From assembly GCF_019320115.1 (NCBI RefSeq), contig NC_089591.1, forward strand, positions 62,381,798 through 62,445,797: a stretch of DNA of 64,000 nt. The letters run 5' to 3'. Within the stretch, counting starts at the first letter, position 1. Each line of letters opens with the position of its first letter. This stretch comes from Miscanthus floridulus. Lineage: Eukaryota; Streptophyta; Magnoliopsida; Poales; Poaceae. Below the pieces are notes generated by a model. The model was not told the DNA's origin. It worked only from the letters and a program-made list of their open reading frames with translations, and did no database searches. Shown piece after piece: positions 1 through 58,180 of the stretch. The position numbers and the translations under genes were made by a program.

Positions 1-534
1 CATTTAGGCATTGCTAATCATACATATCGTGCATCATCAAGCATCCTAATCATACATGCGTAATCTTGCATATAACAACTGAAACATTACTTCGAAACAT
101 ACGAAACATGTTTGTGAAAAGTAAATGATGCATACACTTATTAGAGTTGTTTTGCTCTGATTCTTGCTTGCTAGTTGAGTAGAAACTGTTGGTTATGCTT
201 GTAAATCATCTAGAATTGTTTAGCACAATTTTTGGAGCAAGGTTTGTATTCAAATTAATTCAAAATTTTGCTTCCAAAGTAATTTCCCAAAATTAGGGTT
301 TTGAGTTAAAATTTAATTTTGATTCTATAATTTAAAATCTAGATAGAATTGGACTTTGGTCATAAAAGCAAAGTTGTAGGGAATTAAATTCTAAGCAACT
401 TTCATTTTTGGTACATTTTCAAAAGAGGTCATTTTCTTGCTCAAAATAATGTTTGAAAGTTGGCATTTAAAAATATCTTGAAAATATAAATTGAAAATCT
501 TCATTTCCTTTTTCCTAGGCCGCCGCCTCGTTTC
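1..534 (+). repeat. Partial extra copy of the Tekay-type LTR 5' portion
   Basis: These bases match 561-1094 with no difference that I can see, so the start of the LTR occurs twice at an offset of 560 bp. The copy stops at CGCCTCGTTTC, where the full LTR continues with TCGGCC, and two bases (GC) later the complete LTR starts at 537. The 3' LTR of the same element differs from the 5' LTR at several positions in this stretch, so this piece is closer to the 5' LTR than the two LTRs are to each other. It could be a recent duplication, a recombination product, or an assembly error. Confidence 0.85.
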
Positions 535-536
535 GC

Positions 537-3500
537 TGTAACACCCCGGTGTTATGCCTGCATTTAGGCATTGCTAATCATACATATCGTGCATCATCAA
601 GCATCCTAATCATACATGCGTAATCTTGCATATAACAACTGAAACATTACTTCGAAACATACGAAACATGTTTGTGAAAAGTAAATGATGCATACACTTA
701 TTAGAGTTGTTTTGCTCTGATTCTTGCTTGCTAGTTGAGTAGAAACTGTTGGTTATGCTTGTAAATCATCTAGAATTGTTTAGCACAATTTTTGGAGCAA
801 GGTTTGTATTCAAATTAATTCAAAATTTTGCTTCCAAAGTAATTTCCCAAAATTAGGGTTTTGAGTTAAAATTTAATTTTGATTCTATAATTTAAAATCT
901 AGATAGAATTGGACTTTGGTCATAAAAGCAAAGTTGTAGGGAATTAAATTCTAAGCAACTTTCATTTTTGGTACATTTTCAAAAGAGGTCATTTTCTTGC
1001 TCAAAATAATGTTTGAAAGTTGGCATTTAAAAATATCTTGAAAATATAAATTGAAAATCTTCATTTCCTTTTTCCTAGGCCGCCGCCTCGTTTCTCGGCC
1101 CACGGCCGAAGCCGGCCCAGTGAAGCCCCGCGCCGCGCCAGCTCGCCTCGCCCCGGCCCAGCCCAGCGCGTTGGCCTGCCTCCGCGCTCGCTCGCCCGCT
1201 GGCGCGCCGCGTCGTGTCCCGACCGCGTCAGGGCGCGCTCGCCGCGTGGCCGCCCTGCGCTGGCAACGCCCGCCGCGCGGCAGCCACGGCCTGACTCCAC
1301 CTCCACGCGCGCGCCTTCTTCTGCCCCGCAGCGCTGCCTCCTCCTCATTCCTCCTCCCACTCTCTCAGCCGCAGAGCAACAGCAGCAGCTCACGCCCGCG
1401 CGCACCACGAGCTCGCCACCGCCGCCGCCGCTGCCTCGACAGCAGCATACCCCTCCCACGCCTCCATTCCTCGATTCACGCCGCCAGCAGCTCCGCCTAG
1501 CCTCCCTGCTTCGCTTGCGTTCACTTGCAGCCGCCGTCGTCGAGGTAAGAATCAAGCGCGGCCGCCTCCTTCCTCTCCGGCGAGCGCACTGCCGCGGCCA
1601 GGTGGCTCGTCATGCCGCCGGGCCACCTCCACCATCCCAGCCGTTGCGGCTCGGCATGGCGTACACGCTGGCACCACCCGCGCCACCGGGAGGGCTTGCC
1701 GCCGGTGAGCACCGGCCGGCGGAGCGCCTCCCCTGCTCTCGGTCGCTGACCAGCAGGGCCCAGCCGCAGTGGCGTGGCCTTTGCCCGGCCGAGCTGGGCC
1801 AGGCTGGCTTGGGCTGAGCCCCGAGCCAGGCCGCCGCTCGCCCCTTCGCTCGGACTGAGCAGGCTGATTGTGGCCGTGGGCCAGTTTGTTTCCACGGGCT
1901 GGCCCAGTAACGTTTAAATGATTTGATTTCCATTTATTCTTTATTATTTGAAATCTAAAATGGTTTGAAAAATGTTTGGATGATCAAACTTGCTCCAAAT
2001 TTGTTGAAACAAATTTTGCTAGGTTCCTTATCATCAGATCTACTTGGGAAAATTATTGCATGTCATTTTTGGGATACTTTTCTGTAGGATTTTATTTAAT
2101 CATGAATATTGCTGATAACTTGAAAAATATGTAGAAAAAATCTATAGGCTTCATAAAAATATGATTCCAAGTTTGTTAATCTTATTATGTAATGTACTTC
2201 CTAGGAAAAATATGTTTCATGCATGTGCTGTGGGAAAATTTTGAGGTGTAGTTCAAGTACCATTAATGGCTGAATTTTGTTATTTTTGCTAGAGAGCAAA
2301 CTTTGTATAAAACATGCATGTGAAAATTTTTGGACAGTAATTATATACCATGAAGAACCTAGGAAAAATAGTAATTCTATTGTTTGACACTTTTCATAGT
2401 ACAAAGTAATTTCATGCTCATTTTTATGCTATAGCTTGTCATTTTTGTGTAGGATAGTTTACTTATCCAAATGCCATGAAATTTTGATGGTAGTCTGTTT
2501 AGGGTAGTAGTATGCTACTGTAATTTTCTCAGATTTTTAGGAGCATCAGAAATATAGGTTGCTATTCAAACCTATTATTAATCAGGGTTTAAGCAAGTGT
2601 TGCTTTAAGTGTGATTAAGAAATTAGTAAAGCTTTGGTGTATCTTTGAAGCATTCCATAAGGTATGTTAACTTAACATATTAGTAGTAGAAGAGAATGCA
2701 GTAGATGACATGTGCTTGTAGTATAGTCCTTGGATGATGTTGACTACCTTGCATTTCAACATATCCATTGCATTCATCTCCTTCGATGCACCGTGTGCAT
2801 AATCACTTACGCGCATTGCATCATACAGGATCGCAAACCGAGAACCCAGTCGTCATACCCGAGGAGCCCAAGGAGCAGCTTGAGGTGCAGCAGCAGGAAG
2901 TGCCAGAAGCCGACGAGGAGGACGTTGAGGAACTTCCGGAGTGCCCCGATCACCGTCCGAGCTCCTTCGAGAGAGGCAAGCCCCGGAGCATTTTTCTCCT
3001 AGTTTGCAATTATTTAATTAAATACTTTACTTTAAATTGATGCATTACGTTCAGAAGTTGTTTGCAACCGTTGCTGCATTATACCTTGCTTACCTTTGTT
3101 ATACTATATCCTTGTTACCCTGGTATCCACAGTCGAGTCAATGCTTAGCTGGCTTAGACCGGTAGAAGTCGGGTGATTTCCTATCACCTGCGAGCTATAG
3201 GTGGTTACCTGGATCTGCTTGGATGACTATGAAGTCATGGTATAACTAAGTGTTAAATGAAGTTGAGACCGGACGGAGACTTGCAGAGTTTTGGACTGTA
3301 GTGCTTCCGTCTGTGTCGATTAAGGACCGACCGTTGTTGGGCCTCGAGTCATGTTGAACGCATGCCTTACATTTAGCTAGCCGGATAAAGTACCTTCTGA
3401 CTGTGAAGCTGGGAGATTTTTCGGGCCGAGTAGATTGCCCGCAACGCACTGTACCAGAGCAGGTGTGGTAGGACATGGGGGCGGGATGATAAGACCAAAG

Positions 3501-4444
3501 TGCAGTCGGTCGGCCCCTGGGTACATGTGGTTCTTGGCAAACTCGAGATTCCTGGAAAGTTGACTCGGTGATCAATATCTCACTTTAGCGGGTGAGTGAG
3601 GTTTGTGTAAGGAATAAATCACCAGCTGGTTAGGAATCGATTCAAATCGCCATCGCTCCTGGATAGTGAGCACTTGACTTGAGTTACTTCATCGTAGTAA
3701 TGATTATGGAACACTGGGACAGTTATAATGAATATGACAGTATGGAAGTTGCTTAATGATCATTGGTTATCATTATCTGCTTAATCACATGTTTACTCTA
3801 GTATAGGTGCAAATCTAGTCGACAGGATAATAACAATTAACTTGACAATAATGCTTTTGAAAAGGTTCTTGAAATACTAAAATGCTTCTTTTTGCAAATG
3901 AGTCAGCTACCCTACTATAAAGCCCTTCATAATCCTTGGTGTCAATTATTTTCGGTTATGTCGGGTAAGTCTGGCTGAGTACCTTCTTGTACTCAGGGTT
4001 TTATTCCCACTTGTTGCAGATGGGCAGATGTATTACGGCTACTGTATCAACTGCCTTTATCCTGCGATGGGTGATGCTTAGGACCATGGGCATGGTCATT
4101 CCTTACGTCTCATCTGATGCTTTTGTTGGAGACGATCATCCGCTGGCACTATATTTCAACTCTGCGTGTGTGTGTGTGATTTGAACAAAAGACTTCCGCT
4201 ACTTTCATTCAAACTAGTTTGTAATAACTATGTTGAAACTCTGATGTATTTGAGATTGCGAACTTTTATGTAATATGTGATGGTGACCGCTAAACTTATT
4301 ACGATCATGGCTGGGACATGAGTTGGTTTAAAATCCTTCGTGATTTCACGGACTACCGGGTTATACGGGCTTAAGTTTGTCAATCGTCTGCTCTGGTGGA
4401 TGATTTTCTTACTTAATTTCGTATAATTGGTCGGTTCTGTCACA
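537..4444 (+). repeat. 5' LTR of the Tekay-like element
   Basis: The LTR runs from TGTAACACC to GTCACA, immediately before the PBS, and is 3908 bp long. It is AT-rich apart from a sharply bounded GC-rich island at about 1075-1905 containing a good splice-donor match (GAG|GTAAGA, donor at 1545). A short coding-looking acidic stretch lies at about 2830-2990. The long open frames in the GC-rich island occur on both strands and look like composition effects. A TG microsatellite lies near 4168. Confidence 0.93.
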
Positions 4445-4446
4445 GC

Positions 4447-4458
4447 TGGTATCAGAGC
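4447..4458 (+). other. Primer binding site, initiator tRNA-Met type
   Basis: TGGTATCAGAGC lies two bases after the 5' LTR end. It is the standard complement of the 3' end of plant initiator tRNA-Met used by most Ty3/gypsy and copia elements. Confidence 0.93.
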
Positions 4459-5233
4459 GTGGTTTAGCGTGTTACTCTTCACAAGTGTATTTAAAACAAA
4501 AAGGCATTTGGAAAACGTGATTTTTAAAACTATAAAGTGTGCCAGTGATCATATCCTTTATGCCCAGTTAAGGACTTTAGGTGGCTTAATTAAGTACTGA
4601 CTGGGGTTCTTGCATCATATTTCTCTTTCGTCGCTCATACGGCGTGCTATTGTATGAGTGCCACTTGTTTGAGTGGTAATGAATGGATCATTTGCCTCTA
4701 CGCCTCGGTAAGTGTGAGTTGTGAGAGCATGATCGGATACACCGCCGATCTAGGGTAAATGCTTATATGATGCCGGAGTAATTACATGTTCTACGCGTGT
4801 TTTACAAAGGTATCTCATGTATGGGTCTTCCGTCTGTGGAGGCGATGCCGTCAATAGGACGATGGTTCGGGTAGTTACTACCGTTGTACACGTATCTGGG
4901 GATTCGTGTAGAGCGTGTAGATAAAACTTTACTGCTTTTATGCATTCATTGGGAATTGGGCTGAAATGAATCTTCTGCAGGTACATAACAACGCTATCGT
5001 GTAGAACGTATTAGCTACGTATTGAGAGATCGTTGTATGCCACCGAATTAGTCATTAGAAATTATTTATTTCCTAAGTTTGTGAGAACGTACGACCCGTA
5101 CATACATCATGTTAATAGTGCATTTCATTCATCTCATGCATTCCTCCCCTTATAAATTGATTATCTCATTTTGATAAAAGTTGTATCATCTAAAATATGT
5201 TTCTCCGAGGTAATAAGAGAACTTTTGCTACAG
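4459..5233 (+). other. Untranslated leader between PBS and ORF0
   Basis: I see no convincing coding sequence here. The last bases before the ORF0 start read ACTTTTGCTACAG followed by ATG, which fits a splice acceptor (pyrimidine-rich, then CAG). There are many short ATG-initiated frames upstream, so ORF0 would be poorly reached by scanning on an unspliced RNA. Splicing into this acceptor is one possible solution, but this is inference. Confidence 0.5.
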
Positions 5234-6223
5234 ATGGCCCGCACAAAGCAGACCGCCCGTAAGTCCACCAGAGGAAGAGCACCTCGACGTTCGTTGGCCC
5301 TGAGGGAGCACCGCACCACGGACACCTTCTTGAGCGAGTTTGGCATGCCAACTTTGCTTTGGAGAGTGCTCCATGATGTGGGGTACCCAGAGGGTCAAGA
5401 GCCGGTGTACTCTTGGAATGAAAGCCAGTTAGCAGATGATGGACTTGTAGTGGTGGAGATCACGGTTCCTGCTCTCGGTGATGCTCCAGATTGGGATGGT
5501 TGGCATTTGGAGTTTGAGGGTCATACTCCAGCTGAGGGTGCAGAGGGAGCAGCCTTCCGTGTCATCAGGGACATTATGAGCAGATTTCCCAATGAGCTTG
5601 CAGCAGCTCTAGCTGGTACTTTTCCTAGGGATGATCCTCGTGATGCCATTTGGGTTCAGCCTCAAGGAAGTGCATTGGTCAGAGGTCCAGCTGAAGGACA
5701 GGCTAGCGACAACCAGGCAATGAGTGCTATGTTCACCGCCATCAGAGCGTATGAGGGTCTCGAGAGTACCTACTGGACTTTGACTGGCTTGCGTAGTGAG
5801 GATAAGCTCAAAGGGAAGAAGCAGAAGAAGAGACAGGCACGAGCTATAGCTAGCTTGCAGGAGCAGTTGGCTGATATGAACTTACAGCGAGATCAAGCGA
5901 TTGAGAGAGGTGATAGAGCTATGCAGCGAGTGCATACGTTGACTCAAGCCAACAACAATGCAGACCGCATGATTGGACAGCTGGTTCAAGAAAGGAATGA
6001 AGCCTGGAACGCAAGAAACCTTCTGCTGCAGAGGGTCGATGAGCTAGAGGAATACAACGGCTACTTGCACGAGGAGTTTCACGCGCTCTACAATGGGGTT
6101 GGCCCATATGCTCCACCGAACGCCGCTGGCATGGACATCGACGACGACAACCAGAACGAGCCTGTAGTTTCACCGAGAGGCGATGGTGACGTCTCCGATC
6201 CCGACGATGGCCCCGAGGAGTAG
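5234..6223 (+). CDS. ORF0: extra retrotransposon protein with a histone H3 N-terminal tail, coiled coil and acidic C terminus
   Basis: This intact 329-codon frame lies between the leader and gag. The only in-frame ATG near the start is 5234. After Met the protein reads ARTKQTARKST, identical to residues 1-11 of histone H3, with further similarity up to LA at H3 20-21. The H3 Lys14 and Lys18 positions are Arg here, while the Lys4 and Lys9 contexts are exact. The rest is not histone: a globular-looking region at about 30-175, a Lys/Arg-rich patch near 190-205, a predicted coiled coil at about 205-290, and an Asp/Glu-rich tail to 329. A spacer without genes (6224-6589) separates it from gag in the same frame. 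From memory, rice RIRE3 and RIRE8 have an extra frame (orf0) in this position. Its function is unknown. The frame is open while gag-pol is broken, so it may be the better preserved part. Confidence 0.88.
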   Translation: MARTKQTARKSTRGRAPRRSLALREHRTTDTFLSEFGMPTLLWRVLHDVGYPEGQEPVYSWNESQLADDGLVVVEITVPALGDAPDWDGWHLEFEGHTPAEGAEGAAFRVIRDIMSRFPNELAAALAGTFPRDDPRDAIWVQPQGSALVRGPAEGQASDNQAMSAMFTAIRAYEGLESTYWTLTGLRSEDKLKGKKQKKRQARAIASLQEQLADMNLQRDQAIERGDRAMQRVHTLTQANNNADRMIGQLVQERNEAWNARNLLLQRVDELEEYNGYLHEEFHALYNGVGPYAPPNAAGMDIDDDNQNEPVVSPRGDGDVSDPDDGPEE

Positions 6224-6589
6224 GCTAGTTGCTTTGTGTTAGTATCTAGGTCTTGTCGCGATGACCTTTCTTTTGTTGGCATGTAATCTATCGTGTGTTG
6301 CTTCGAATGTATGAGACTTGGCATATGGTTGGAACTTGATTTTAGAATGCGATATCTGAACGCATAAAAAGTCCAGTGTATGTATGCTGGCAATGTGATT
6401 GTATGGACACAATGTTTGCCGTTGAAGTAATTCGATTAAGTGCTGTTGTTTTAATTGGAATGCGATTGTTGTGCCTCTGTTTTTATTGTATGAATTTATT
6501 CTCTCCAGTAAATTCAGTATGGCATAATTTTTCCTTCACTCGCAATTATTACAGCGTCACTCAATCGTACTTGTTGCTGAAATATGTAG

Positions 6590-7876
6590 ATGACAAACAC
6601 TCACCGAACCACGTATGAGGCCGCTGAGCCCGGTGCCAACGGTGCGGGGACCAGTGGTGGTGGTGGTGGTGGAAACCACAGCAACAACAATGAGCCTCCC
6701 CATGAACCGCATTTGCCACCTCCTCCTCCATTTACCCCCGAGATGTTCCTCGCACAGCTGCTCGGGAGTCAGCGCAACACAGAACAATCTCAGAAGAACA
6801 TGGAGGATCTTCTCAAAACCATCGCCAACAACGTTCAACATGGTAACAATCAAGGTGGTGGCATGGGAGTGAACCAATATAGCAGCTTCAAAGATTTCAT
6901 GGACACCAGGCCACCAGTATTCAAGGAAGCAATAGAGCCACTCGATGCTGAGGAATGGATCAACACAATGGAAGATAAATTCCGTGTGTTGAGAATGACT
7001 GAGGTGCTGAAAACGGAATATGCTGCACTTCAATTGCAAGGACCGGCGGGAATGTGGTGGAAGCACCATCGCACCACCTTCCCTCCAAATGCTCAAATTT
7101 CTTGGAGAGAGTTTGCTGAGGCCTTCCGTGGAGTCTATATTCCACCAGGGCTGACCGAAATGAAGTTGGGAGAGTTTCTGGCATTGAACCAGGGCACCAA
7201 AACCGTGACACAATACCTGCATGCCTTCAACAACTTGTGTCGCTATGCTCCCGACATGGTTGACACAGATGCTAAAAGGATAGCCAGTTTTAAGAGGGGT
7301 CTCAATCCAAAAATGATGAAGCATGTTGGTACCAACAACCGCGTCAGATTCAACGACTTCATCAGCGACTGTCTGAAGCAGGAGAAGAATAACAACGCCA
7401 GCACCGCCGCCAAGACACGCAAGAGAGCCTTTGAAGGTGGGCCGTCTCAAGCTAGAGCACCTATGGGAGGTCGTCCTCCATATCGCCCATCGGCACCTGG
7501 CGCTAGATTCAGGCCACCTCAGTCAAGAAGCCAGAATTTCCGTGGACCTCAAAAGCCGTACAAGATGGCAGTATAGCCCAACAGAGCAGCCGCAACTGCG
7601 GTGCAAGGCAGTTCCAAGGGAGCTGTGGGATCTGCCGGGACAGTAAGAGGACCCTGCTATAACTGTGATCAACCCGGTCATTTCTCGAAGTTTTGTCCGT
7701 ACCCGCCCAAGAAGAAACAGCAGACTTATAATGCTAGAGTGCACAGCACAACAGTGGATGAAATTCCAGAGGGAGAGCCCGTCACTGCTGGTAAGTTTAC
7801 TGTCAATGAAAACCCTGCAGTTGTTCTATTTGATTCTGGATCATTGCATTCTTTTATGAGTCAAGCATTTGCATAG
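6590..7876 (+). pseudogene. gag: gag polyprotein of the Tekay-like element, with internal TAG stops
   Basis: The frame opens at ATG 6590 and encodes the capsid-type region. It has a Gly/Asn-rich N terminus, then the Retrotrans_gag core with WWKHH and the FxxAF...YIPP pattern near residues 120-200. A basic Arg/Pro-rich stretch follows, and then the zinc knuckle CYNCDQPGHFSKFC (C-x2-C-x4-H-x4-C) at 7655-7696. In-frame TAG codons at 7574-7576 and 7874-7876 interrupt the otherwise continuous gag-pol frame, the first just before the zinc knuckle. Both fit C-to-T change at a former CAG, though the ancestral codons are inferred. The gag and pol parts share one frame, as is usual for Tekay elements. 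The copy should not make full Gag-Pol without readthrough. Confidence 0.88.
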
Positions 7877-9583
7877 AAACATGAACAACTATGCACAGAA
7901 TTGGGTTATGGTTACCGTATAAGTTCAGCAGGGGCTGATGTTTTGACCAACCGGATGGTTCGAGGGGCAACCCTTGAATTAGGTAGCAGAAAGTTCCGAG
8001 TGAACTTGATAGTTATGCCTGGGTTAGTCTTGGATGTCATTATAGGGATGAATTGGATGAAGGATTGGGGAGCAGTCATAGATACAGGAAGTCGAGTACT
8101 TACCCTAAAGGACCCCCTAGGTAAGGGTACTTTCCAAGTACCAGTGCCTCGAAGGACAGACCTTATAAGTGTTACATGTGCTACGGCAGTCACTCCTATT
8201 CATCAGATTCCGGTAGTGTGTGAGTTCCCGGACGTATTTCCGGATGAGCTACCTGGTCTTCCACCAGATAGGGAGATTGAGTTTGGAATTGAGCTAGTCC
8301 CCGGAACAGCTCCGATTTCAAGGAGACCATATCGGATGCCTCCAGATGAGTTAGCTGAGCTGAAGAAGCAATTAGAAGATTTGTCGAAAAAGGGGTTTAT
8401 TCGACCAAGCAAGTCTAAATGGGGATGTCCCGCTTTGTTTGTGAAAAAGAAGAAAGAGGGCACGTTGAGAATGTGCGTAGATTATAGGCCACTCAACGCT
8501 GTGACCATCAAGAATAAATATCCCTTGCCTCATATTGATGTTCTATTTGACCAATTATCCAAGGCCAAGGTGTTCTCAAAAATAGATTTGAGATCCGGTT
8601 ATCATCAGATCAAGATTAGGCCACAGGATATACCGAAAACTGCATTTTCCACCAGATACGGGTTGTATGAGTATCTTGTCATGTCTTTTGGCTTGACGAA
8701 TGCTCCCGCATACTTTATGTTTTTGATGAATACAATTTTCATGCCAGAATTGGATAAGTTTGTGGTAGTGTTCATCGATGACATTCTGGTGTACTCCGAG
8801 AACGAAAAAGATCATGAAGAGCATCTGAGAACTGTCTTGACCAGACTTAGAGATCATCAATTGTATGCTAAGTTTAGCAAATGCGAATTCTGGTTGAAGG
8901 AAGTTCCTTTCCTTGGTCACATTCTGTCAGAGAATGGAGTTTCAGTCGATCCAAGTAAGGTGCAAGAAGTTATGAATTGGAAAGCACCGACCACAGTTCC
9001 TGAGATTAGAAGTTTCTTAGGATTAGCAGGTTATTACCGTCGCTTTATACCAGATTTCTCGAAGATCGCCAAACCAATGACAAGCCTCCTTCAGAAGGAT
9101 CATAAATTTGTGTGGACAGAAGAGTGTGAAGCAGCTTTCCATACTTTGCGGAAACTGTTGACCACTGCTCCGGTTCTAGCACAACCAAATATTGAGAAAC
9201 CATTTGATGTGTTTTGCGACGCATCAAAAACTGGATTGGGTTGTGTCCTTATGCAAGAAAGGAGAGTCATTGCTTATGCATCACGACAGTTGAGAAAGCA
9301 CGAGGTCAACTATCCAACACATGATCTTGAACTTGCTGCAGTTGTGCACGCCCTCAAAATTTGGAGACATTATCTACTTGGTAATGTGTGCAATATTTTC
9401 ACAGATCATAAGAGTCTTAAGTATATCTTTACCCAACCAGAGCTAAACATGAGACAATGTAGATGGTTGGAATTGATCAAGGATTACAACTTGAATGTGC
9501 AATATCATCCTGGTAAAGCCAATGTAGTGGCAGATGCTTTGAGCAGAAAGTCACATTACTTGAATGTGCAGCCATTACCTTGA
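7790..9583 (+). pseudogene. pol: pol part 1: protease, reverse transcriptase, RNase H
   Basis: The aspartic protease motif VLFDSGS is encoded at about 7820-7845, and a TAG at 7874 falls inside the protease. From there the frame is open to a TGA at 9581. The reverse transcriptase is well preserved, with [21 protein letters not shown], and the catalytic FIDD at 8771-8782. The RNase H follows, with VFCDAS, the [13 protein letters not shown] helix and FTDHKSL, ending at VVADALSR near 9545. The frame stops just past the RNase H, and the integrase continues in another frame. A one-base change close to 9560-9583 is therefore the likely cause. The domain order PR-RT-RH is standard for Ty3/gypsy. Confidence 0.9.
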
Positions 9584-11120
9584 AGATGGATTCGATCTAA
9601 TGCATCCTGCTGTGTTACATAGTATTCAGATTAGTTGCTCTTTGGAGAGTAAGATAATAGAAGGTCAGAAAACTGACAAGGGGATATTCCACATCAAAGA
9701 GAAAATAAAAGAGAAGTCGTCTCAACACTTTAAAGTGGATGAACAGGGCGTGTTGTGGTTTGACAACCGTCTTGTGGTTCCTAAGGATCGAGAGCTTAGG
9801 AATAAACTCATGGATGAAGCTCACCTTTCTAAGCTATCTATCCATCCCGGAAGTAGTAAGATGTATCAAGAACTAAGATCTCGTTATTGGTGGACCAAAA
9901 TAAAGAAAGAAATTACAGCATATGTTGTTAGATGTGACACATGTTGTCGAGTGAAAGCAATTCACATGAAACCTACCGGTATGTTGCAACCCTTATCAGT
10001 CCCTAGTTGGAAGTGGGACGATATCAGTATGGATTTTATCACGGGTTTGCCCACTACTCAAAAAGGACATGATTCAATATGGGTAATTGTGGATCGTCTT
10101 ACCAAGACAGCTCATTTCTTGCCTGTCAAAACAGATTATTGACCACCTCAATATGCCGAGAGATATATCGCAGAAATTGTGAGGTTGCATGGTATACCAA
10201 AGACCATAGTATCTGATAGAGGCTCACAGTTCACGGCCCACTTTTGGGAACATTTACACAAAGGTTTAGGAACTAGTTTAATTCGCAGTACCGCTTATCA
10301 TCCTCAGACAGATGGTCAGACTGAACGAGTGAATGCTGTTTTAGAGGATATGTTAAGAGCATGTGTATTGTCTTCTAAAGGATCATGGGAATCATGGTTA
10401 CCGTTAGCTGAATTTTCTTATAATAATAGTTATCAAGAAAGCATTAAGATGGCCCCATTCGAAGCTTTATATGGCAGAAAATGTAGAACACCATTGAATT
10501 GGGTCGAGCCTGGTGATAGAAGGTATTATGGCATTGACTTTGTAGAAGAAGCCGAGAAGAAAGTTCATATTATTCAGCAGAATATGAAAGCTGCCCAATC
10601 ACGTCAGAAAAGCTATGCAGACAAAAGAAGGAGACCCCTTGTATTTGAAGTTGGTGACTATGTTTATCTGAAAGTCACGCCAATGAAGAAGAAAAGGTTT
10701 GGAATCCGAAGAAAGCTTGCTATGAGATTCGTAGGACCATACAAGATCTTGAAACAAAGAGGTCCGGTAGCCTACAAGTTAGAGTTACCAGAGACAATGA
10801 GTACCGTTTTCCCAGTTTTCCATGTATCACATCTCAAGAAATATTTGCGTGTTCCGGAGGAAAGAATAGAACCTCGAGGTATTCAACTCAAATCAGATTT
10901 GGTGTATCGTGAGCAACCAGTCCGGGTGTTAGACACTAAGGAACGTGCTACTCGGAATAGTGTGGTGAAAACATACAAGATACAATGGGATCATCATGAT
11001 GAGGGAGATGCAACTTGGGAAACAGGAGAGTATCTACAAAAAGCTTATGAAGAATTTTATAACAAATGGTTCGTAACCCAAATCTCGGGACGAGATTTTT
11101 ATAAGGGGGGAGGGCTGTAA
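9564..11120 (+). pseudogene. pol: pol part 2: integrase with GPY-type module and chromodomain-like C terminus
   Basis: The integrase is read in a different frame from the RT. It shows the HHCC zinc region (a His pair before SRYWW, then CDTCC), the catalytic core with Asp in SMDF, Asp in VSDRGSQF and Glu in QTERVN, and the GPYKI module. The C terminus (VRVLD...YKIQW...TWE...L) aligns with chromodomains. Compared with HP1, one cage position keeps Trp (IQW), whereas the first is not aromatic and the third appears to be His. This resembles the plant chromodomain class lacking a full aromatic cage. A TGA at 10140-10142 splits the core, and a former CGA is plausible. The frame ends at the start of the 3' LTR. 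Confidence 0.9.
11102..11115 (+). other. Polypurine tract of the Tekay-like element
   Basis: The purine run AAGGGGGGAGGG ends one or two bases before the 3' LTR TG at 11116. This is where plus-strand DNA synthesis is primed in LTR elements. It overlaps the last codons of the integrase frame. Confidence 0.85.
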
Positions 11121-14100
11121 CACCCCGGTGTTATGCCTATATTTAGGCATTGCTAATCATACATATCGTGCATCATCAAGCATCCTAATCATACATGCGT
11201 AATCTTGCATATAACAACTGAAACATTACTTCGAAACATACGAAACATGTTTGTGAAAAGTAAATGATGCATACACTTATTAGAGTTGTTTTGCTCTGAT
11301 TCTTGCTTGCTAGTTGAGTAGAAACTGTTGGTTATGCTTGTAAATCATCTAGAATTGTTTAGCACAATTTTTGGAGCAAGGTTTGTATTCAAATTAATTC
11401 AAAATTTTGCTTCCAAAGTAATTTCCCAAAATTAGGGTTTTGAGTTAAAATTTAACTTTGATTCTATAATTTAAAATCTAGATAGAATTGGACTTTGGTC
11501 ATAAAAGCAAAGTTGTAAGGAATTAAATTCTAAGCAACTTTCATTTTTGGTACATTTTCAAAAGAGGTCATTTTCTTGCTCAAAATAATGTTTGAAAGTT
11601 GGCATTTAAAAATATCTTAAAAATATAAATTGAAAATCTTCATTTCCTTTTTCCTGGGCCGCCGCCTCGTTTCTCGGCCCACGGCCGAAGCTGGCCTAGT
11701 GAAGCCCCATGCCGCGCCAGCTCGCCTCGCCCTGGCCCAGCCCAGCGCGCTGGCCTGCCTCCGCGCTCGCTCGCCCGCTGGCGCGCCGCGTCGTGTCCCG
11801 ACCACGTCAGGGCGCGCTCGCCGCGTGGCCGCCCTGCGCTGGCAACGCCCACCGCGCGGCAGCCATGGCCTGACTCCACCTCCACACGCGCGCCTTCTTC
11901 TGCCCCGTAGCGTTGCCTCCTCCTCATTCCTCCTCCCGCTCTCTCAGCCGCAGAGCAACAGCAGCAGCTCACGCCCGCGCGCACCACGAGCTCGCCACCG
12001 CCGCCGCCGCTGCCTCGACAGCAGCATACCCCTCCCACGCCTCCATTCCCCTGATTCACGCCGCCAGCAGCTCCGCCTAGCCTCCCTGCTTCGCTTACGT
12101 TCGCTTGCAGCCGCCGTCGTCGAGGTAAGAATCAAGCGCGGCCGCCTCCTTCCTCTCCGGCGAGCGCACTGCCGCGGCCAGGTGGCTCGTCACGCCGCCG
12201 AGCCACCTCCACCATCCCAGCCGTTGCGGCTCGGCATGGCGTACATGCTGGCACCACCCGCACCACCGGGAGGGCTTGCCGCCGGTGAGCACCGGCCGGC
12301 GGAGCGCCTCCCCTGCTCTCGGTCGCTGACCAGCAGGGCCCAGCCGTAGTGGCGTGGCCTTTGCCCGGCCGAGCTGGGCCAGGCTGGCTTGGGCCGAGCC
12401 CCGAGCCAGGCCACCGCTCGCCCCTTCGCTCGGACTGAGTAGGCCGATTGTGGCCATGGGCCAGTTCGTTTCCACGGGCTGGCCCAGTAACGTTTAAATG
12501 ATTTGATTTCCATTTATTCTTTATTATTTGAAATCTGAAATGGTTTGAAAAATGTTTGGATGATCAAACTTGCTCCAAATTTGTTGAAACAAATTTTGCT
12601 AGGTTCCTTATCATCAGATCTACTTGGGAAAATTATTGCATGTCATTTTTGGGATACTTTTCTGTAGGATTTTATTTAATCATGAATATTGCTGATAACT
12701 TGAAAAATATGTAGAAAAAATCTATAGGCTTCATAAAAATATGATTCCAAGTTTGTTAATCTTATTATGTAATGTACTTCCTAGGAAAAATATGTTTCAT
12801 GCATGTGCTGTGGGAAAATTTTGAGGTGTAGTTCAAGTACCATTAATGGCTGAATTTTGTTATTTTTGCTAGAGAGCAAACTTTGTATAAAACATGCATG
12901 TGAAAATTTTTGGACAGTCATTATATACCATGAAGAACCTAGGAAAAATAGTAATTCTATTGTTTGACACTTTTCATAGTACAAAGTAATTTCATGCTCA
13001 TTTTTATGCTATAGCTTGTCATTTTTGTGTAGGATAGTTTACTTATCCAAATGCCATGAAATTTTGATGGTAGTCTGTTTAGGGTAGTAGTATGCTACTG
13101 TAATTTTCTCAGATTTTTAGGAGCATCATAAATATAGGTTGCTATTCAAACCTATTATTAATCAGGGTTTAAGCAAGTGTTGCTTTAAGTGTGATTAAGA
13201 AATTAGTAAAGCTTTGGTGTATCTTTGAAGCATTCCATAAGGTATGTTAACTTAACATATTAGTAGTAGAAGAGAATACAGTAGATGACATGTGCTTGTA
13301 GTATAGTCCTTGGATGATGTTGACTACCTTGCATTTCAACATATCCATTGCATTCATCTCCTTCGATGCACCGTGTGCATAATCACTTACGCGCATTGCA
13401 TCATACAGGATCGCAAACCGAGAACCCAGTCGTCATACCCGAGGAGCAGCTCGAGGTGCAGCAACAGGAAGTGCCAGAAGCCGACGAGGAGGACGTTGAG
13501 GAACTTCCGGAGTGCCCCGATCACCGTCCGAGCTCCTTCGAGAGAGGCAAGCCCCTAGAGCATTTTTCTCCCGGTTTGCAATTATTTAATTAAATACTTT
13601 ACTTTAAATTGATGCATTACGTTCAGGAGTTGTTTGCAACCGTTGCTGCATTATACCTTGCTTACCTTTGTTATACTATATCCTTGTTACCCTGGTATCC
13701 GCAGTCGAGTCAATGCTTAGCTGGCTTAGACCGGTAGAAGTCGAGTGATTTCCTGTCACCTGCGAGCTATAGGTGGTTACCTGGATCTGCTTGGATGACT
13801 ATGAAGTCATGGTATAACTAGGTGTTAAATGAAGTTGAGACCGGACGGAGACTTGCAGAGTTTTGGACTGTAGTGCTTCCGTCTGTGTCGATTAAGGACC
13901 GACCGTTGTTGGGCCTCGAGTCATGTTGAACGCATGCCTTACATTTAGCTGGTCGGATAAAGTACCTTCCGACCACAAAGCTGGGAGATTTTTCGGGCCG
14001 AGTAGATTGCCCGCAACGCACTATACCGGAGCAGGTGTGGTAGGACATGGGGGCGGGATGATAAGACCAAAGTGCAGTCGGTCGGCCCCCGGGTACATGT

Positions 14101-15016
14101 GGTTCCTGGCAAACTCGAGATTCCTGGAAAGTTGACTCGGTGATCAATATCTCACTTTAGCGGGTGAGTGAGGTTTATGTAAGGAATAAATCACCAGCTG
14201 GTTAGGAATCGATTCGAATCGCCATCGCTCCTGGATAGTGAGCACTTGACTTGAGTTACTTCATCGTAGTAATGATTATGGAACACTAGGACAATTATAA
14301 TGAATATGACAGTATGGAAGTTGCTTAATGATCATTGGTTATCATTATCTGCTTAATCACATGTTTACTCTAGTATAGGTGCAAATCTAGTCGACAGGAT
14401 AATAACAATTAACTTGACAATAATGCTTTTGAAAAGGTTCTTGAAATACTAAAATGCTTCTTTTTGCAAATGAGTCAGCTACCCTACTATAAAGCCCTTC
14501 ATAATCCTTGGTGTCAATTATTTTCGGTTATGTCGGGTAAGTCTGGCTGAGTACCTTCTTGTACTTAGGGTTTTATTCCCACTTGTTGCAGATGGGCAGA
14601 TGTATTACGACTACTGTATCAACTGCCTTTATCCTGCGATGGGTGATGCTTAGGACCATGGGCATGGTCATTCCTTACGTCTCATCTGATGCTTTTGTTG
14701 GAGACGATCATCCGCTGGCACTATATTTCAACTCTGCGTGTGTGTGTGTGATTTGAACAAAAGACTTCCGCTACTTTCATTCGAACTGGTTTGTAATAAC
14801 TATGTTGAAACTCTGATGTATTTGAGATTGCGAACTTTTATGTAATATGTGATGGTGACCGCTAAACTTATTACGATCATGGCTGGGACACGAGTTGGTT
14901 TGAAATCCTTTGTGATTTCACGGACTACCGGGTTATACGGGCTTAAGTTTGTCAATCGTCTGCTCTGGTGGATGATTTTCTTACTTAATTTCGTATAATT
15001 GGTCGGTTCTGTCACA
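11116..15016 (+). repeat. 3' LTR of the Tekay-like element
   Basis: This 3901-bp copy is collinear with the 5' LTR. The 7-bp length difference is explained by one 9-bp deletion (near 13446) and two single-base insertions, near 12050 and 13556. Substitutions are concentrated in the GC-rich island, and many are C/T or G/A. The copy ends GTCACA, and the flanking sequence at 15017 is unrelated to what lies left of the 5' LTR. Confidence 0.93.
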
Positions 15017-23729: not shown

Positions 23730-26700
23730 TTAGAAATTATCTCCATGAACGGCAGTGACTGGCGTGTCGTCATCATCATCACTATCACTATCACTATTGT
23801 CGTCATTACTATCAATATTGTCGAGCTCGTATAAGTCCTCATCATATCCACGAATGGCATCATCTCCATCGTCCTCATCATCTACATCGTCCTCATCATC
23901 TACATCGTCCTCAACAACTCCATCGCGCTCCATCCTCCATCGCTCAAGCATTCTTAAGTCCTTGGCATTCTGCACCTCATCACCCTCATCCTCATCGATG
24001 TCGTTGTCTACTTCCATGCCCATCAGCGAAGTTATGTCTATCTCCAAACTCCCTTCTAGCCCCTCAGGCTGATAGAACTCTCCGCTATCTGTCTTTGGGT
24101 CAAAGTTGTAATCATCATCGTTTGGGACAGGCGCTTTTACCGCGTGGCGATACCAAGTGCACAAGGTACCAACCCGTAAGCTTCTCATCTTTTTGGCACG
24201 CCCATGGGAGATAATAAACTTGCTTGGCCTATTGAGCCACAATATAGACATCGTCTCCTTTATAGATGGGATCCTGTCGAATTTCGACTTGCCCAATCTT
24301 AGGGGCTCTTCTCGTGACTTCAGGATCGAACCAATGGCATTTGAAAACCACTAGATTAAGAGCTTTGGGACCCTCAAAGTTGAGCTCATATATTTCTTCG
24401 ACTATGCCGTAATAGTCGCGCTCATCGGTGCCGGGCGTACGAACTCCGGTGCACGTGGTGCTTCAATTGGGCCGACTCTCCTCGTAGCTTCTCGTGCGAA
24501 AGCGATAGCCATTCGCATCATAAATGGTGAATGACTTGACCCTATGGGAGAAGCCCCTGCCAACCTGTTTCAATTCATCACTCATTTTCGCATCCGTGTG
24601 GGCCTGCAAGGTGAGGCCAGGTAGATCGTTACATTAGTCGCTCCTAGGAGCAAAGTGGAATCTCAAAGTTGGAACAAGGTAAGTTGGATGGTACCTTCGT
24701 ACAGAACTAGGAAATAAAATTAGGCACACCATATTTGAGAAGATGGTCTTCTTCTTAAGGGGAAGGAGCCCTATTCCCTCTCTAGTATTCATTAATAAAT
24801 TCCCTAAAAAAACAAGAGACAAGGGGGTCAGATCGATAGGTGGAGGATAGTGACGGTGTATGTAACAAGCTCATTGAGAACTTACCTCTGATAAGGATTC
24901 ACTTCTTCAAGGTTCAACAACACGTAGAGGAAGATAGTGCGCCACTCATAATCTCGCAAGTTCTTGGGGGTACCTGCGCTTCCTCTTCCGAGTTGCCCTG
25001 TGAAAAGGCTAAGGTTCGATGAACTCTCGACGGCGTTGTGATGAGGGGGTGGATTGTGCATGCTGGGAAGGGTCTCATTATAGTACGCCGTTGTGAAGTT
25101 CGACACCTCCTCCAGAATGAATGCCTCTGCCACGGAAGCCTCAATTTTGGCTTTATTTCTACACTTTTTTCTGAAGAACCTTTAGACACCTCTCGATTGG
25201 ATAGCACCAATGGGCCTGCATGGGCCCCCCAAACGTGCCTCGCACGGTAGGTGCAAAATCAGATGTTGCATCAGTAGGAAGAAGCCGGGTGGAAAGATCA
25301 TCTCCATCTTGCAGAGCAACAAAGGTGCAAGATGCTCCAGTTCAGCAATCGTGGCCTGAGATAACTCCTTGGCACAAAGCTGGCAGAAGAAATAGCTCAA
25401 CTCTGCCAGTACACGCCACACTAGCTTGGGGAGGTATCCCCGGGTCATCGCAGGAAGGAGCCATTGAATCCATATGTGGAAGTCATGACTCTTCATCCCG
25501 TTGACTTTCATAGTCTTGAAGTTCACTCCCCTACTTAGATTCACCGCATACCCATTAGGGAACATTAACGTCTTGATCCACTACAGTACTTCCTTCCTAT
25601 TGCCCCTTTTTAGGATGTAATCGGTCGGGCCCCTTTTCCATCTCTTGCCGAGCGCAGGGGTCTTCATCACTAGCTTTGGTCTATCGCACATCTTTTCCAC
25701 GTCTAGTCTAGCCTTACATTGTCCTTTGACTTTTCCTTTATGTCCATGAGTGTTGCCCAGAGTGCCTCGGCAACATTCTTTTCTATGTGCATTACATCGA
25801 TGTTGTGTGGAAGAAGAAGGTCCTTGAAGTAGGGGAGCCTAGTCAAGCCTGATATATGAGTCCACATGTGTTCGGTACCATATCCAATAAAACCACCCTT
25901 GACTTCATCAATTTGGAGAGCCTCTATCTCGGCAAGGACCTCGGCACCGCCCATAATCTGAGGAATGGGGTCGGTGACTTCAACACCTTTCATGAAGTGC
26001 TTGATGTCTCTTCTGAATTCATGGTTGTCAGGCAGGAATTGACGATGTTTGTCGAACAAAGAATACTTGCCACCCTTGTTCAGCTAGGTGAACATCGCAG
26101 CTGCCTTGCATGTTGGGCAAGAGAACTTCCCGTGAACACACCACGCGCTGAATATGCCATACGCCAGGAAGTCATGCATTGAATATTGGTACCACACATG
26201 CATTGTGAAGTTCTTCTTTGTAGCTCGGTCATACGTCAGTACCCCCTTTTACCAAGCATCTTGCAATTCATCCCACACTAGCTGCATAAACACACCCATA
26301 TTGTTGCCCGGGTGTCCAGGTATTATCAGCGACAAGAACACGTTCTTGGGTTCAAAAATGACGCCGGGGGGAAGATTGAGGGGGATCATGAAAATGGGCC
26401 AACAAGTGTACGGGGCCGCCATCATTCCAAACGGGTTGAACCCATCTATTGCCAGTGCTACACGTACATTCCGAGCCTCCATAGCTTTGCTAGGATGCAT
26501 GACATCGAAGTGCTTCCATGCATCACCATCCGATGGGTGTATCATCTTGTCAGGACTGTATCTTTTGCCATTCTTGTGCCATGTCATTTGTTTCGCGGAC
26601 TCCTTTGTCATGTACAGCCGTTGGATCCTCGGTAGGAAAGGAAGGTACCGTAGGACCTTCTTGGGGATCTTAGACTATTTCTTCTTGCCATCACTACCGT

Positions 26701-27418
26701 CTACCTCCACAAACCTAGAGGCGTTGCACTTTGGACAGTGCGTTGCTTTCTCGTGGTCTCCCCTAAATAGGACGCACCCGTTCGGACAAGCATGGATCGG
26801 CTCATACGGCATCTTAAGTGCATGAAGGAGTCTCTGTGACTTGTACATGTTCTTCGGCAGGATGTGACCCTCTGGAAGTAGTTTGCCCAAAACTGTCAAC
26901 ATGGCATCGAAGCTGTCTCGACTCAAGCTCAATTGCGACTTCAACGCTATTAGGCGTGAAATGGCATCCAGTTGCGAAACCATTGTCTTCTCGTGAAGGG
27001 GCTTCTGTGCCGAATCCAGCATGGCTAAGAACGCCTTTGCGGTTTCCTCTGGATCCTCCTCCTCCTCCAATCCTTCAACGAACCGTGCATCGTGAAAGTC
27101 TACCATCATGTCTGCCATCCTGGCATCTCCATCATACTCCTCGAGGCATGGTCTCACCACCTCCTCTCTAATACGATCGCCTTCACTATGGTAGATCCAG
27201 CGGGTATAGTTTGCAACGAATCCGTGCTTGTAAAGATCTCTCACCACCTGACTCTTTCGTTTTCTTTTCGTGTTCTTACATTTGCTGCAGGGACATGGCA
27301 TCCGACTCGACCCTTTAGCAGCCCTGCCAAATGCATGCTCTAGGAAATGACCGGTCCCCCTAACCCATTCATGGCTCTTACTTGCGTAGCCCATGTACAT
27401 CCACTCATGGTTATCCAT
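23730..27418 (-). pseudogene. TNPD-like transposase gene (Transposase_21 family) of the CACTA element, decayed
   Basis: The frame opens at ATG 27418 (MDNHEWMY) with the Transpos_assoc zinc region (PCPCSKCKN). The Transposase_21 core follows in the same frame, with HACPNGCVLFRG and CPKC near 26750, ALAIDGFNPFG at about 26450, and HNIDVMHIEKNV near 25800. Stops lie at 26675, 26249 and 25703, plus one more near 26078. A DUF4218-like block (NGMKSHDFHIWIQWLLP) is at 25565-25182, then C-terminal pieces with KCHWFDPEV near 24345 (DUF4216-like). The end is an acidic Asp-run (23730-24296). The Asp in IDGF and the HxxDVMH region are conserved. Frameshifts separate the last blocks. The protein would have catalysed cut-and-paste transposition. 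Confidence 0.85.
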
Positions 27419-33936: not shown

Positions 33937-35867
33937 CTACGTGCCCGCAAAAGCATAGGTGTTAATCAGTGACTTGTATTCTTCATCCTCAGCACATCCT
34001 CTACTTGCAAGTACACTCACTAACCTGTCTGCACCTTCTGCGTCATTCTTCTCCTTAAAACTTGCCAGGAGACTCTCAACATTGGTGGGCCTTGGTTTCC
34101 ATTTATTTGCACTTTTAATTGCTGTGGCTTTTTCCATACATGACAGAGCTTCAGATATTTTATCATCCTTCATGTAGGCTGTGGCAAGGATTTCCCAGGT
34201 GTTTGGCTTGGGATTTCCACCTTTCTCAACAAATCGATTCAGAGTTTGCTCAGCCTTTGTAATCAAACCTTCTTTAGCATACCATGCTAATAAAATGTTC
34301 ATGGTCTTAGGATCGAAACTAGAGCTTTTGGATGCCCATTCCTCATATAGAAGCTCAGCTCCCTCGATATCTCCTATCCTTATAAGAGCAGACAGTAACT
34401 CCTGGTAACCCAGGTTATGAATCATAGGGAAAGTTGCCTTATACCAGTTCCAAATACGGTAAACCTCTTCCTTCTTGCCAAGATGGCTATAGAGTGTCAT
34501 GAGATAGTGAAAACACTTTTTCTCCCGGCCAGTTGTTCTCTTTTCAGCATCTTTCAAGCATTCTTCTGCCTTGTCAGAGTTTCCTAGCTTAATATACATG
34601 CTAGCCAGAGTAGTATAAGTAGTCCAATTGGCAACAACAGACTCATCAGCAATCATCTGGCTAAAGACTCGCTCCATTTCTTCAGCATCTTGTTTAGCCG
34701 CGCAACTCTTTATCCAAATGTTGTAAGTGCAGACATCAAAAGAAACATTTCTTTCCTTCATCTCATCAATAATTGCCAACACTTCATTAGGTTCCCCAGC
34801 ATCCACATAGAAATTCATCAGCACATTACAAGGTAATGTATCAGATGCGAATCCTTTTTTCCTCATTTGCTCAAATGTGTCTTCTGTTTTCTCTTTCATC
34901 ATAGCTTGGGCGTAAACATTGAGAAGGGAACCATATGTCCGCTTGTCCTTCATGGCATCAGGGAGCTCATCAAAGTATTTCTCAGCATGTGAAACACCGC
35001 GTACTTTAGCAATCAGGTCCAACTGGATTGCCATAGTCACTCGATGAGAGAGAAAATCTATCTCTGCGCTCTGTCATCCAATCGTAAACCTGTTCATGTG
35101 ATGGAAATTTTTTATGAGAACCAATATCAAGGATATCACTCTTATGTTTGGCCATCAGAAGATGCATCAAGAATGTTGTAGATTCTAATGCCTAGTCATC
35201 AATAAGCATTTTCGCAGGATGAGCAGCGAAAGGATATGTGAGATCGGTAAGGGAACCAAGCTATTTTTTCCTACCCCTAATTATTGATCTTACACCGCTC
35301 GAACAGTACCTATTTTTCAATTGGATTTCAGGTTCATGTATAAACCGTTTCGATCAATATAGTTAAGTAGGTGGGGATCCGCCGAATTGTTTGAAGGAAA
35401 AAAACATTGAACACACAGTCGCACTAGCTGAAACCGAAGGGGAATATGTCGGTGCGAGGAACGGATCGCAATAGTATAACTACCTGGAGCGCGAGGTTGA
35501 ACCTCCTGAACTTTCGGAGCTCCTTGGCGATGCGGCAGAGCTCCCACTTGTCGAGGCGGCGCTCCCCTTCGTCCCAGGCCCCCAGCGTGCGCCCCACGGG
35601 CCGCCCGCCGTGCCCCACAGCTATGCGCCGGTACAGGGTGCTCCAGCGCAGTGTAGGTCGACGCTCGTAATCCACCGCCCCATAGCTGTGCACCTTCACC
35701 ACCCGCTGCCCGGCAGCAGCAGACGACGATGGGGTGCTCGAGGAGGAGGAGGAGGCCGCGCACCTCACAGTCACTGCAACCACCGCCGCAGCGACACACG
35801 TACGCCGCTGCGGCGACGAGCGTGCCGGGGTTAGGGGGGAGGAGGAGGTGACGAGGTGGAGCAGCAT
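33937..35867 (-). CDS. Pentatricopeptide repeat (PPR, P-type) protein with an apparent 1-bp frameshift
   Basis: Exon 1 is 35867-35484 (128 codons) and exon 2 is 35089-33937, with a 394-bp intron (donor CAG|GTAGTT, acceptor GAACAG). The first ATG of the frame is 35867. Its product is rich in Ser, Arg and Ala for about 70 residues, like a transit peptide, then has KWELCRIAKELRKFRRFNLAL. Exon 2 opens with VYDWMTERRDRF. After SLSSSD the frame breaks, because the extra base at about 35035 sends it to a stop within ten codons. Removing one base restores a 367-codon frame with about eight PPR units to the stop at 33937. The family resembles Arabidopsis At1g02150-type organellar RNA-binding proteins. 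Either this allele is broken or the base is an error. Confidence 0.85.
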
Positions 35868-57225: not shown

Positions 57226-57517
57226 ATGTTCTTGTTAGTACTAAAAAGACTTAGGACATCTTCAGCTTCTTCTTTTTGGCTTAACTCAGAATGTGGTCAA
57301 CATCTGGTCCTTTCCCTAGTTGCAAAAACATCCTAGGATCAACAAGCCCCCGAGTACTTCATGGTTGAGTTTTGGAAGCCTCGTCTTGTTCCTTCATGTC
57401 CTGCCGAGTAGGTACAAGCGTCGTCTGAGCGCTTTCCTGAGTGAGTGTAGCCCCCGAGCCTCTTGCTATTTGGAACAAGGAGTTGGAGGGTCTTGTCTTG
57501 AAATTGCTCTAATTTAT

Positions 57518-58180
57518 GCTCAGGCTTAGTTTCAGTCGTTTTGCTTTTTGGTTTGGGTGTTAGCTTATTAGCTACCCTCATCAGCGGGCTCAAGCGTTTT
57601 TTGGCTCTTTTGCTCTCGATCGATATGCTCAGGCGTATTTTCAGCCATTTTACTTTTTGGTTCAGGTGTTAGCTTATTAGGTACCCTCATCGGTGGGCTC
57701 AAGCATCTTTTCAGCTCTTTTGCTCTCGATCGGTATGCTCAGGCGTACTTTTAGCCATTTTGCTTTTGGGTTCGGGTGTTAGCTTATTAGCTACCCTCAT
57801 CGGTGGGCTCAAGCATCTTTTCAGCTCTTTTGCTCTCGGTCAGTATACTCAGGCGTCTTTTTAGCCATTTTGCTTTTTGGTTTGGGTGTTAGCTTATTAG
57901 CTACCCTCATCGGCGGGCTCAAGCATCTTTTCAGCTCTTTTGCTCTCGGCCAGTATGCTCAGGCGTCTTTTTAGCCATTTTGCTTTTTGGTTTGGGTGTT
58001 CGCTTGTTAGCTACCCTCATCGGTGGGCTCAAGCATCTTTTTAGCTCTTTTGCTCTTAGCCTGTATGCTCAGGCGTCTTTTTAGCCATTTTGCTTTTTGG
58101 TTCGGGTGTTAGCTTATTAGGTACCCTCATCGGCGAGCTCAAGCATCTTTTCAGCTCTTTTGCTCTTAGTCGGTATGCTC
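57518..58180. repeat. Tandem array, six units of exactly 110 bp
   Basis: The word GCTCAGGC (or its variants) starts at 57518, 57628, 57738, 57848, 57958 and 58068, and a truncated start is at 58178, so every step is 110 bp. Each unit contains GGTGTTAGCTTATTAGCTAC, CCTCATCGGTGGGCTCAAGC and AGCTCTTTTGCTCT. The units differ by scattered substitutions but no indels. The array lies between the opposite-strand gene and the integrase end. Confidence 0.93.

What the first reader, a model, noticed from the sequence alone, without database searches (positions are those of the whole stretch)
5234..5300. Retrotransposon ORF0 starts with an exact histone H3 tail
After the initiator Met, ORF0 reads ARTKQTARKST, identical to H3 residues 1-11, with partial similarity to about residue 21. 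The K4 and K9 contexts are exact, while the H3 K14 and K18 positions are Arg and cannot be acetylated. The rest of the protein is unlike a histone and carries a coiled coil. Because the match sits at the very N terminus, Met removal would expose the same Ala1-Arg2 end as real H3. Inference: it could be methylated by host H3 methyltransferases, compete with nucleosomes for readers or writers, or attract them to the element's particles. The frame is open while gag-pol is broken. I do not know whether this has been described.
Basis: partly seen in the sequence, partly recalled or inferred. Interest (0 to 1): 0.92.

Follow-up and report, generated by a model that had tools for sequence, protein, structure and literature searches.

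The report
Retrotransposon protein wearing a histone tail
A plant jumping gene carries an extra protein whose first 21 residues copy the tail of histone H3; distant relatives keep the same tail, so it is probably useful to the element, but what it does is untested and the histone likeness seems to have been noticed before.

Summary
ORF0 (5234-6223) of a Tekay-like Ty3/gypsy element encodes 329 aa; after Met, 11 residues in a row and 17 of 21 equal histone H3. This is not chance and not private to this copy: of 120 ORF0 homologues, 5 reach residue 1 and all 5 have the tail, two of them from a clade only 35-41% identical overall. Between clades the disordered tail is 59-73% identical, the disordered linker behind it 11-33%, the folded domain 37-52%. 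K9-S10-T11 never changes; K14 and K18 are always lost; K4 is lost in the second clade. Behind the tail lie a predicted dsRBD-like fold, a long helix and an acidic end. Best reading: a captured H3 tail kept as a K9-type histone mimic on an oligomeric scaffold; its partner is unproven. The open frame beside a broken gag-pol is uninformative (P about 0.42). Grass Tekay ORF0s are known, and I recall, unverified, that Steinbauerova et al. 2011 reported partial H3 similarity in some. No DNA of relatives was reached, so no dN/dS.

The parts
537..4444 (+). 5' LTR (TGTAACACCCC...TCTGTCACA)
   Evidence: 98% identical to 11116-15016
4447..4458 (+). primer binding site, TGGTATCAGAGC, the form expected for plant initiator tRNA-Met
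   Evidence: sequence 2 nt after the LTR end; tRNA assignment recalled
5234..6223 (+). ORF0 (5' extra ORF), 329 aa
   Evidence: 120 homologues
5237..5299 (+). H3-like tail, 21 residues after Met, 17 of 21 identical to H3(1-21); predicted disordered
5300..5326 (+). disordered linker (residues 23-31), poorly conserved (11-33% between clades)
5339..5599 (+). alpha-beta-beta-beta-alpha domain (residues 36-122), dsRNA-binding-domain-like fold; the usual lysine motif of the second helix is absent
   Evidence: lysine motif recalled
5705..6097 (+). long helix, probable coiled coil (residues 158-288)
   Evidence: block pLDDT 87-97 over residues 191-280, 62-72 over 161-190
6101..6220 (+). acidic C-terminal end (last 40 residues, net charge -11)
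6590..7576 (+). gag, ends at an in-frame stop; a zinc-knuckle-like stretch lies downstream of it (my reading of the sequence)
   Evidence: PF03732 E 2.7e-18; stop list
7955..9583 (+). pol piece: protease end, RT, RNase H
9564..10142 (+). pol piece: integrase zinc-binding domain, other frame
10350..11120 (+). pol piece: integrase SH3-like domain and chromodomain remnant
   Evidence: SH3_Tf2-1 E 3.9e-24; Chromo E 9.7e-4, below the curated cut-off
11103..11114 (+). purine stretch before the 3' LTR (probable polypurine tract)
   Evidence: sequence
11116..15016 (+). 3' LTR

Best explanation
ORF0 is of the kind of the 5' extra ORFs of grass Tekay (Del/Retrosat2-type) chromoviruses. An ancestor took over the first codons of a host histone H3 gene, and the element has kept them as a flexible N-terminal tail. 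After Met removal (expected, not shown) the tail ends in the same Ala1-Arg2 as H3. Selection appears to keep the K9-S10-T11 core with A1, R2, T6, P16, R17 and L20, and to do without the acetylatable K14 and K18. The tail sits on a dsRBD-like domain without the usual RNA-binding lysines, a long probable coiled coil and an acidic end, so an oligomer would show several tails at once. Most likely it acts as a K9-type H3 mimic in the nucleus: it can be bound or methylated by host H3K9 proteins (SUVH writers, CMT or SHH1-type readers) and so either draws them off the element's chromatin or tethers ORF0 and its particle to them. Shown: tail, architecture in prediction, retention across two clades. 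Inferred: capture, oligomer, modification, partner, effect.
For: Exact 11-residue and 17 of 21 match at the very N terminus. H3-like start in 5 of 5 homologues that reach residue 1: P0009, P0077, P0110 in the window's clade (17, 19, 17 of 21) and P0015, P0109 in a distant clade (14 of 21 each). The most H3-like member has 19 of 21, which fits capture followed by divergence. Tail identity between clades 59-73% over 8 pairs against 11-33% in the adjacent linker and 37-52% in the folded domain; one-sided Fisher P of tail against linker plus domain 0.035, 0.007, 0.18, 0.046 for the four pairs tested. K9, S10, T11 in 6 of 6; K14 R or C and K18 R or H in 6 of 6. Residues 1-36 predicted disordered.
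Against: Only two clades and five complete N termini were available, the pairs are not independent, and one of four Fisher tests is 0.18. The first part of the folded domain (residues 32-55) is as conserved as the tail, 62-75%, so the tail is not the best kept part of the protein. The query itself held H3-like words, which may favour relatives with the tail, although full-length relatives share many other words. 35 of 120 homologues are annotated as starting exactly at M38, after the tail; this may be gene calling in metagenomes, but loss of the tail there is not excluded. P0110 has V7 C8 and P0015 has H8, which should weaken binding by proteins that read A7-R8-K9. No DNA of relatives, so conservation at the RNA or DNA level is not separated from protein selection. 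No expression or modification data.
Confidence: 0.42

Rival explanations
1. The tail is a nuclear import signal. The H3 tail is itself bound by importins, and a basic disordered N terminus would carry ORF0, with gag or the particle, into the nucleus; histone readers play no part.
For: Net charge of the first 36 residues is +5 to +7 in the six sequences that have them, and K14 and K18 are mostly replaced by Arg or His, so basic character is kept. Poaceae 5' aORF proteins are predicted nuclear (PMC11728184, section 9 read).
Against: A charge-only signal does not explain invariant S10, T11, T6, P16 and L20, nor the fixed position at residue 1. H3 K14, recalled as a key contact of the importin Kap123, is lost in 6 of 6.
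Confidence: 0.22
2. Neutral relic: a gene fragment taken over by transduction that has not yet decayed.
For: Host-gene capture by LTR elements is known (PMC7264820, part 1 of 3 of the text read). The window's own open frame is expected by chance (P of about 0.42). One of four Fisher tests is not below 0.05 (0.18).
Against: Between clades only 35-41% identical to the window overall, the tail is better conserved than the folded domain as a whole and clearly better than the adjacent linker.
Confidence: 0.16
3. Targeting: the tail, once methylated at K9, is bound by the element's own integrase chromodomain or by host HP1-like proteins and helps place new copies in chosen chromatin.
For: The element has a chromodomain remnant.
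Against: Tekay chromodomains are type II (PMC11728184, section 10); [quoted passage not shown] The remnant here scores below Pfam's cut-off.
Confidence: 0.1
4. ORF0 is mainly a silencing suppressor acting through its dsRBD-like domain on the DCL/DRB machinery, and the tail is secondary.
Against: Foldseek has no match at E <= 0.001. Pfam dsrm is not listed for any of 10 members scanned at E <= 10 (for P0024, 25 of 27 families shown) nor among the first 25 of 47 families for 48 members; a profile of the domain finds no dsRBD among PDB sequences. Helix 2 lacks the usual lysines in the window.
Confidence: 0.1

Closest known systems
ORF0 / 5' extra ORF of grass Tekay chromoviruses (Retrosat2, RIRE3, RIRE8, ZmSat2, SorSat2)
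   Same: Position between 5' LTR and gag, long LTRs (3.9 kb here), and for maize and sorghum a part with helices and strands and a long C-terminal helix (PMC3485330, abstract and sections 10 and 14; PMC11728184, section 9).
   Different: Neither paper has the word histone in its held main text (0 occurrences); I had no sequence of those ORF0s, so whether they carry the tail, or are homologous to this ORF0, is unknown here.
Poaceae chromovirus extra ORFs with partial similarity to histone H3 (Steinbauerova et al. 2011, Genetica 139:1543; recalled abstract, not held)
   Same: Same lineage and position and, as I recall, the same H3 likeness, explained there by transduction or recombination of a cellular gene.
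   Different: I do not recall any statement there on the exact N-terminal register, the K9 core, loss of K14 and K18, or a mimic function.
Viral histone mimics (influenza NS1 tail, SARS-CoV-2 ORF8 ARKS motif; recalled)
   Same: A short H3-like motif in a protein of a parasite.
   Different: Those are motifs of a few residues, internal or C-terminal (recalled); here 21 residues in register at a free N terminus.
H3K9 mimics in host proteins (G9a/EHMT network; PMC10611923, search listing only)
   Same: K9-type sequence outside histones that can be methylated and read (recalled).
   Different: Host proteins.

Membership tests
Tekay/Del chromovirus with 5' extra ORF | Ty3/gypsy gag-pol domains | tested here: met
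   gag PF03732, RVT_1, RNase H, Integrase_H2C2 above their cut-offs
Tekay/Del chromovirus with 5' extra ORF | Integrase chromodomain | tested here: inconclusive
   Chromo E 9.7e-4, 19.5 bits, below the curated cut-off of 25.1
Tekay/Del chromovirus with 5' extra ORF | Placement within the Tekay clade by RT tree | not tested
   no reference set was built; assignment rests on the chromodomain match, the long LTR and ORF0
Tekay/Del chromovirus with 5' extra ORF | Sense ORF of 250 or more codons between 5' LTR and gag | tested here: met
   329 codons at 5234-6223
Histone H3 | Histone fold after the tail | tested here: not met
   no Pfam histone hit; score with H3 falls to 32 without the first 22 residues
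Histone H3 tail mimic | H3-like sequence, at the correct place for a free N terminus, conserved among relatives | tested here: met
   5 of 5 homologues reaching residue 1, of 120 examined
Histone H3 tail mimic | Modified or bound by H3 enzymes or readers | not testable with these tools
   needs peptide assays
dsRBD (dsrm) | alpha-beta-beta-beta-alpha fold | tested here: met
dsRBD (dsrm) | Recognised by the Pfam sequence profile | tested here: not met
   dsrm not listed for the window or 9 homologues at E <= 10 (for P0024, 25 of 27 families shown)
dsRBD (dsrm) | Lysine motif of helix 2 for RNA binding | tested here: not met
   window TPAEGAEGAAF, no lysine; P0015 has TPKEGAGKAAY and P0021 TTKEAAERAAF, so one or two basic residues occur in other clades; motif recalled

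The most novel reading that the evidence does not exclude
A plant retrotransposon lineage has carried a full-register histone H3 tail at the free N terminus of an oligomeric accessory protein, tuned by evolution to a form that cannot be acetylated at K14 and K18 but can be methylated at K9, and uses it as an anti-silencing decoy for the H3K9 methylation and RNA-directed DNA methylation machinery (SUVH/CMT/SHH1), joined to a dsRBD-like module facing the DCL/DRB side.
Probability: 0.22. Interest if true: 0.88.

Novelty: new variant of a known kind. Interest (0 to 1): 0.62.

Why it matters
If the tail is methylated or read, this is histone mimicry by a plant transposon, at a length and register not known to me from viruses, aimed at the very mark (H3K9me) that silences such elements. 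It would give a function to the extra ORF of a grass retrotransposon group, for which I know of none that has been shown, and a natural peptide that separates K9 reading from K4, K14 and K18.

Tried and rejected
Chance match: rejected. A second ORF0 in the window: a weak tblastn match at 25191-25433 (-) has E 1.1; the same frame upstream has a stop and no H3-like start, and a transposase-associated domain lies nearby at 26675-27418; rejected. DNA of relatives: viral contigs and genome contigs gave none, so no dN/dS. A third protein search with residues 1-64 of P0015 scored 2 candidates, P0015 and P0109. Viral structure library: no match at E <= 0.001. Domain folded alone without an alignment: pLDDT 53, not used. 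Sequence profile of the domain against PDB: 3 matches at E 1.6-1.9, none a dsRBD. Profile of A3 (12 rows) against PDB: 12 matches at E 0.24 or worse, all in the part behind the domain, no H3 among them; six of the 12 rows of A3 lack the tail. Own-chromodomain tethering: kept as a weak rival. Papers: 10 searches brought up no held paper that I saw describe an H3 tail in a retrotransposon; I judged this from the listings and opened parts of five papers (PMC3485330, PMC6317226, PMC7264820, PMC9289625, PMC11728184). The library lacks most subscription journals, and Steinbauerova 2011 is not held.

Full report
What is there. The window holds a Ty3/gypsy LTR retrotransposon: LTRs at 537-4444 and 11116-15016 (98% identical), a primer binding site 2 nt after the 5' LTR, gag at 6590-7576 and pol pieces with RT, RNase H, integrase zinc-binding and SH3-like domains and a chromodomain match below the curated cut-off. 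Between the 5' LTR and gag lies ORF0, 5234-6223, 329 aa. It begins MARTKQTARKSTRGRAPRRSLALREH. After Met, 11 residues in a row and 17 of 21 equal histone H3.

Is it more than chance. A PDB sequence search with the whole ORF0 lists 130 sequences at E <= 1; the 60 shown are H3 proteins or peptides at E 3.3e-4 to 2.4e-3, aligned from query residue 1 or 2. The local score against H3 is 92, against a maximum of 58 in 2000 shuffles; without the first 22 residues it is 32. So the likeness is real and confined to the tail.

Is it in relatives. Two searches of 5.8 billion proteins gave 122 listed proteins (in one search, 120 of 193 matches were listed and only the 7998 candidates sharing most words were scored). 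I set aside P0017, an insect protein with whole H3 copies, and P0016, whose first half is unrelated, leaving 120. Of these, 5 reach residue 1, 6 start at residues 2-31, 2 at 32-37, 35 exactly at M38 and 72 beyond. All 5 that reach residue 1 have the H3-like tail: P0009, P0077 and P0110 in the window's clade (17, 19 and 17 of 21 matches to H3) and P0015 and P0109 in a clade with 41% and 35% identity to the window (14 of 21 each). Of the 35 that start at M38, 32 are JGI and 3 ENA proteins by my count of the lists; whether DNA for the tail lies upstream could not be read. P0099, of a further clade, starts at residue 21 with Leu-Ala, the H3 L20-A21 pair, a hint but no more.

Which residues are kept. 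Over the six sequences A1, R2, T6, K9, S10, T11, P16, R17 and L20 never change. K14 is R or C, K18 R or H in all six. K4 is K in the window's clade and R in the other. So K9 with its 3' side, not K4, is the constant part, and the two acetylatable lysines have gone. Between clades the tail is 59-73% identical over eight pairs, the linker behind it (23-31) 11-33%, the folded domain (32-128) 37-52%; within the domain, residues 32-55 reach 62-75%, as high as the tail. One-sided Fisher tests of tail against linker plus domain for four of the eight pairs gave 0.035, 0.007, 0.18 and 0.046; against the linker alone 0.05, 0.005, 0.13 and 0.018. The pairs share sequences and are not independent. Tail and linker are both predicted disordered, so the contrast between them is the telling one. 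This speaks for selection on the tail but rests on proteins only.

How it most likely works. Shown: the tail, its place at the N terminus, its retention in two clades, the predicted scaffold. From general knowledge: Met before Ala is removed, and H3K9 methylation by SUVH enzymes read by CMT and SHH1 proteins silences plant retrotransposons. Inferred: the tail is bound or methylated as a K9-type H3 mimic; several tails on a coiled coil would compete well with nucleosomes; the effect is anti-silencing or tethering. An import signal is the strongest rival, since H3's own tail binds importins (recalled) and the charge is kept, but it does not explain the invariant uncharged positions. Binding by the element's own chromodomain is unlikely because Tekay chromodomains are type II (PMC11728184, section 10), and these lack most of the aromatic cage (PMC6317226, passages).

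The open frame is not a sign of preservation: four lesions in 4530 nt of gag-pol predict 0.87 in ORF0's 990 nt, P(0) of about 0.42. K4 is not a constant feature.

What is known. ORF0s of grass Tekay elements were described for Retrosat2, RIRE3 and RIRE8 with homologues in maize and sorghum; the authors suggest metabolic enzyme functions from homology models and call its role in transposition unclear (PMC3485330, abstract, sections 10 and 14 read; no occurrence of 'histone'). A 2024 paper reports structural similarity to a DRBM-containing protein, a long C-terminal helix and predicted nuclear location for 5' aORFs of maize and sorghum Tekay elements (PMC11728184, sections 9 and 10 read; no 'histone'). 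That agrees with the architecture found here. I recall from the abstract of Steinbauerova et al. 2011 (Genetica 139:1543-1555) that extra ORFs of chromoviruses occur in Poaceae only, in 5' regions, and that part of them show partial similarity to the histone H3 gene. The paper is not held and I could not check it; PMC9289625 (passages) confirms another item that I recall from it, a LONELY GUY-type domain. On this ground the H3 likeness is probably not new. The exact register, the K9 core, the loss of K14 and K18, the contrast with the linker and the mimic reading did not turn up in my searches (listings only for most papers).

Limits. The species is unknown; the genome search tool did not complete. 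No DNA of relatives, hence no dN/dS, no test of host H3 as source, no expression data.

Noticed in passing
window 537-4444 and 11116-15016: The two LTRs differ by 67 transitions and only 2 transversions (K2P 0.018, about 0.7 My at the recalled rate of 1.3e-8), as expected for a heavily methylated, silenced copy.
   Followed up: partly
window 1-534: A 534-base piece of the same LTR (from LTR position 25), 100% identical to 561-1094, ends just before the full 5' LTR; the flanks TTCGC and ACCGC give no target-site duplication and the right flank does not continue the LTR. Recombination, duplication or assembly effect.
   Followed up: partly
window 5220-5236 and 6575-6592: The ORF0 ATG follows TTTTGCTACAG, which looks like a splice acceptor, and the gag ATG also follows AG; the leader 4445-5233 has 19 ATGs. 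ORF0 and gag may be reached by alternative splicing.
   Followed up: no
window 6101-6220: Acidic C-terminal end, shared by the six ORF0s checked that have it; it could fold back on the basic H3-like tail.
   Followed up: no
window 5345-5347 (codon of M38): 35 of 120 homologues are annotated from exactly this Met, after the tail: gene-calling artefact or a second, tail-less product.
   Followed up: partly
window 26675-27418 (-): Transposase-associated domain (PF13963), probably a CACTA-type remnant (CACTA recalled).
   Followed up: no
window 33937-35034 (-): PPR protein ORF.
   Followed up: no
window 57515-58181: Tandem repeat with a period of about 110 bases seen in the self-comparison.
   Followed up: no
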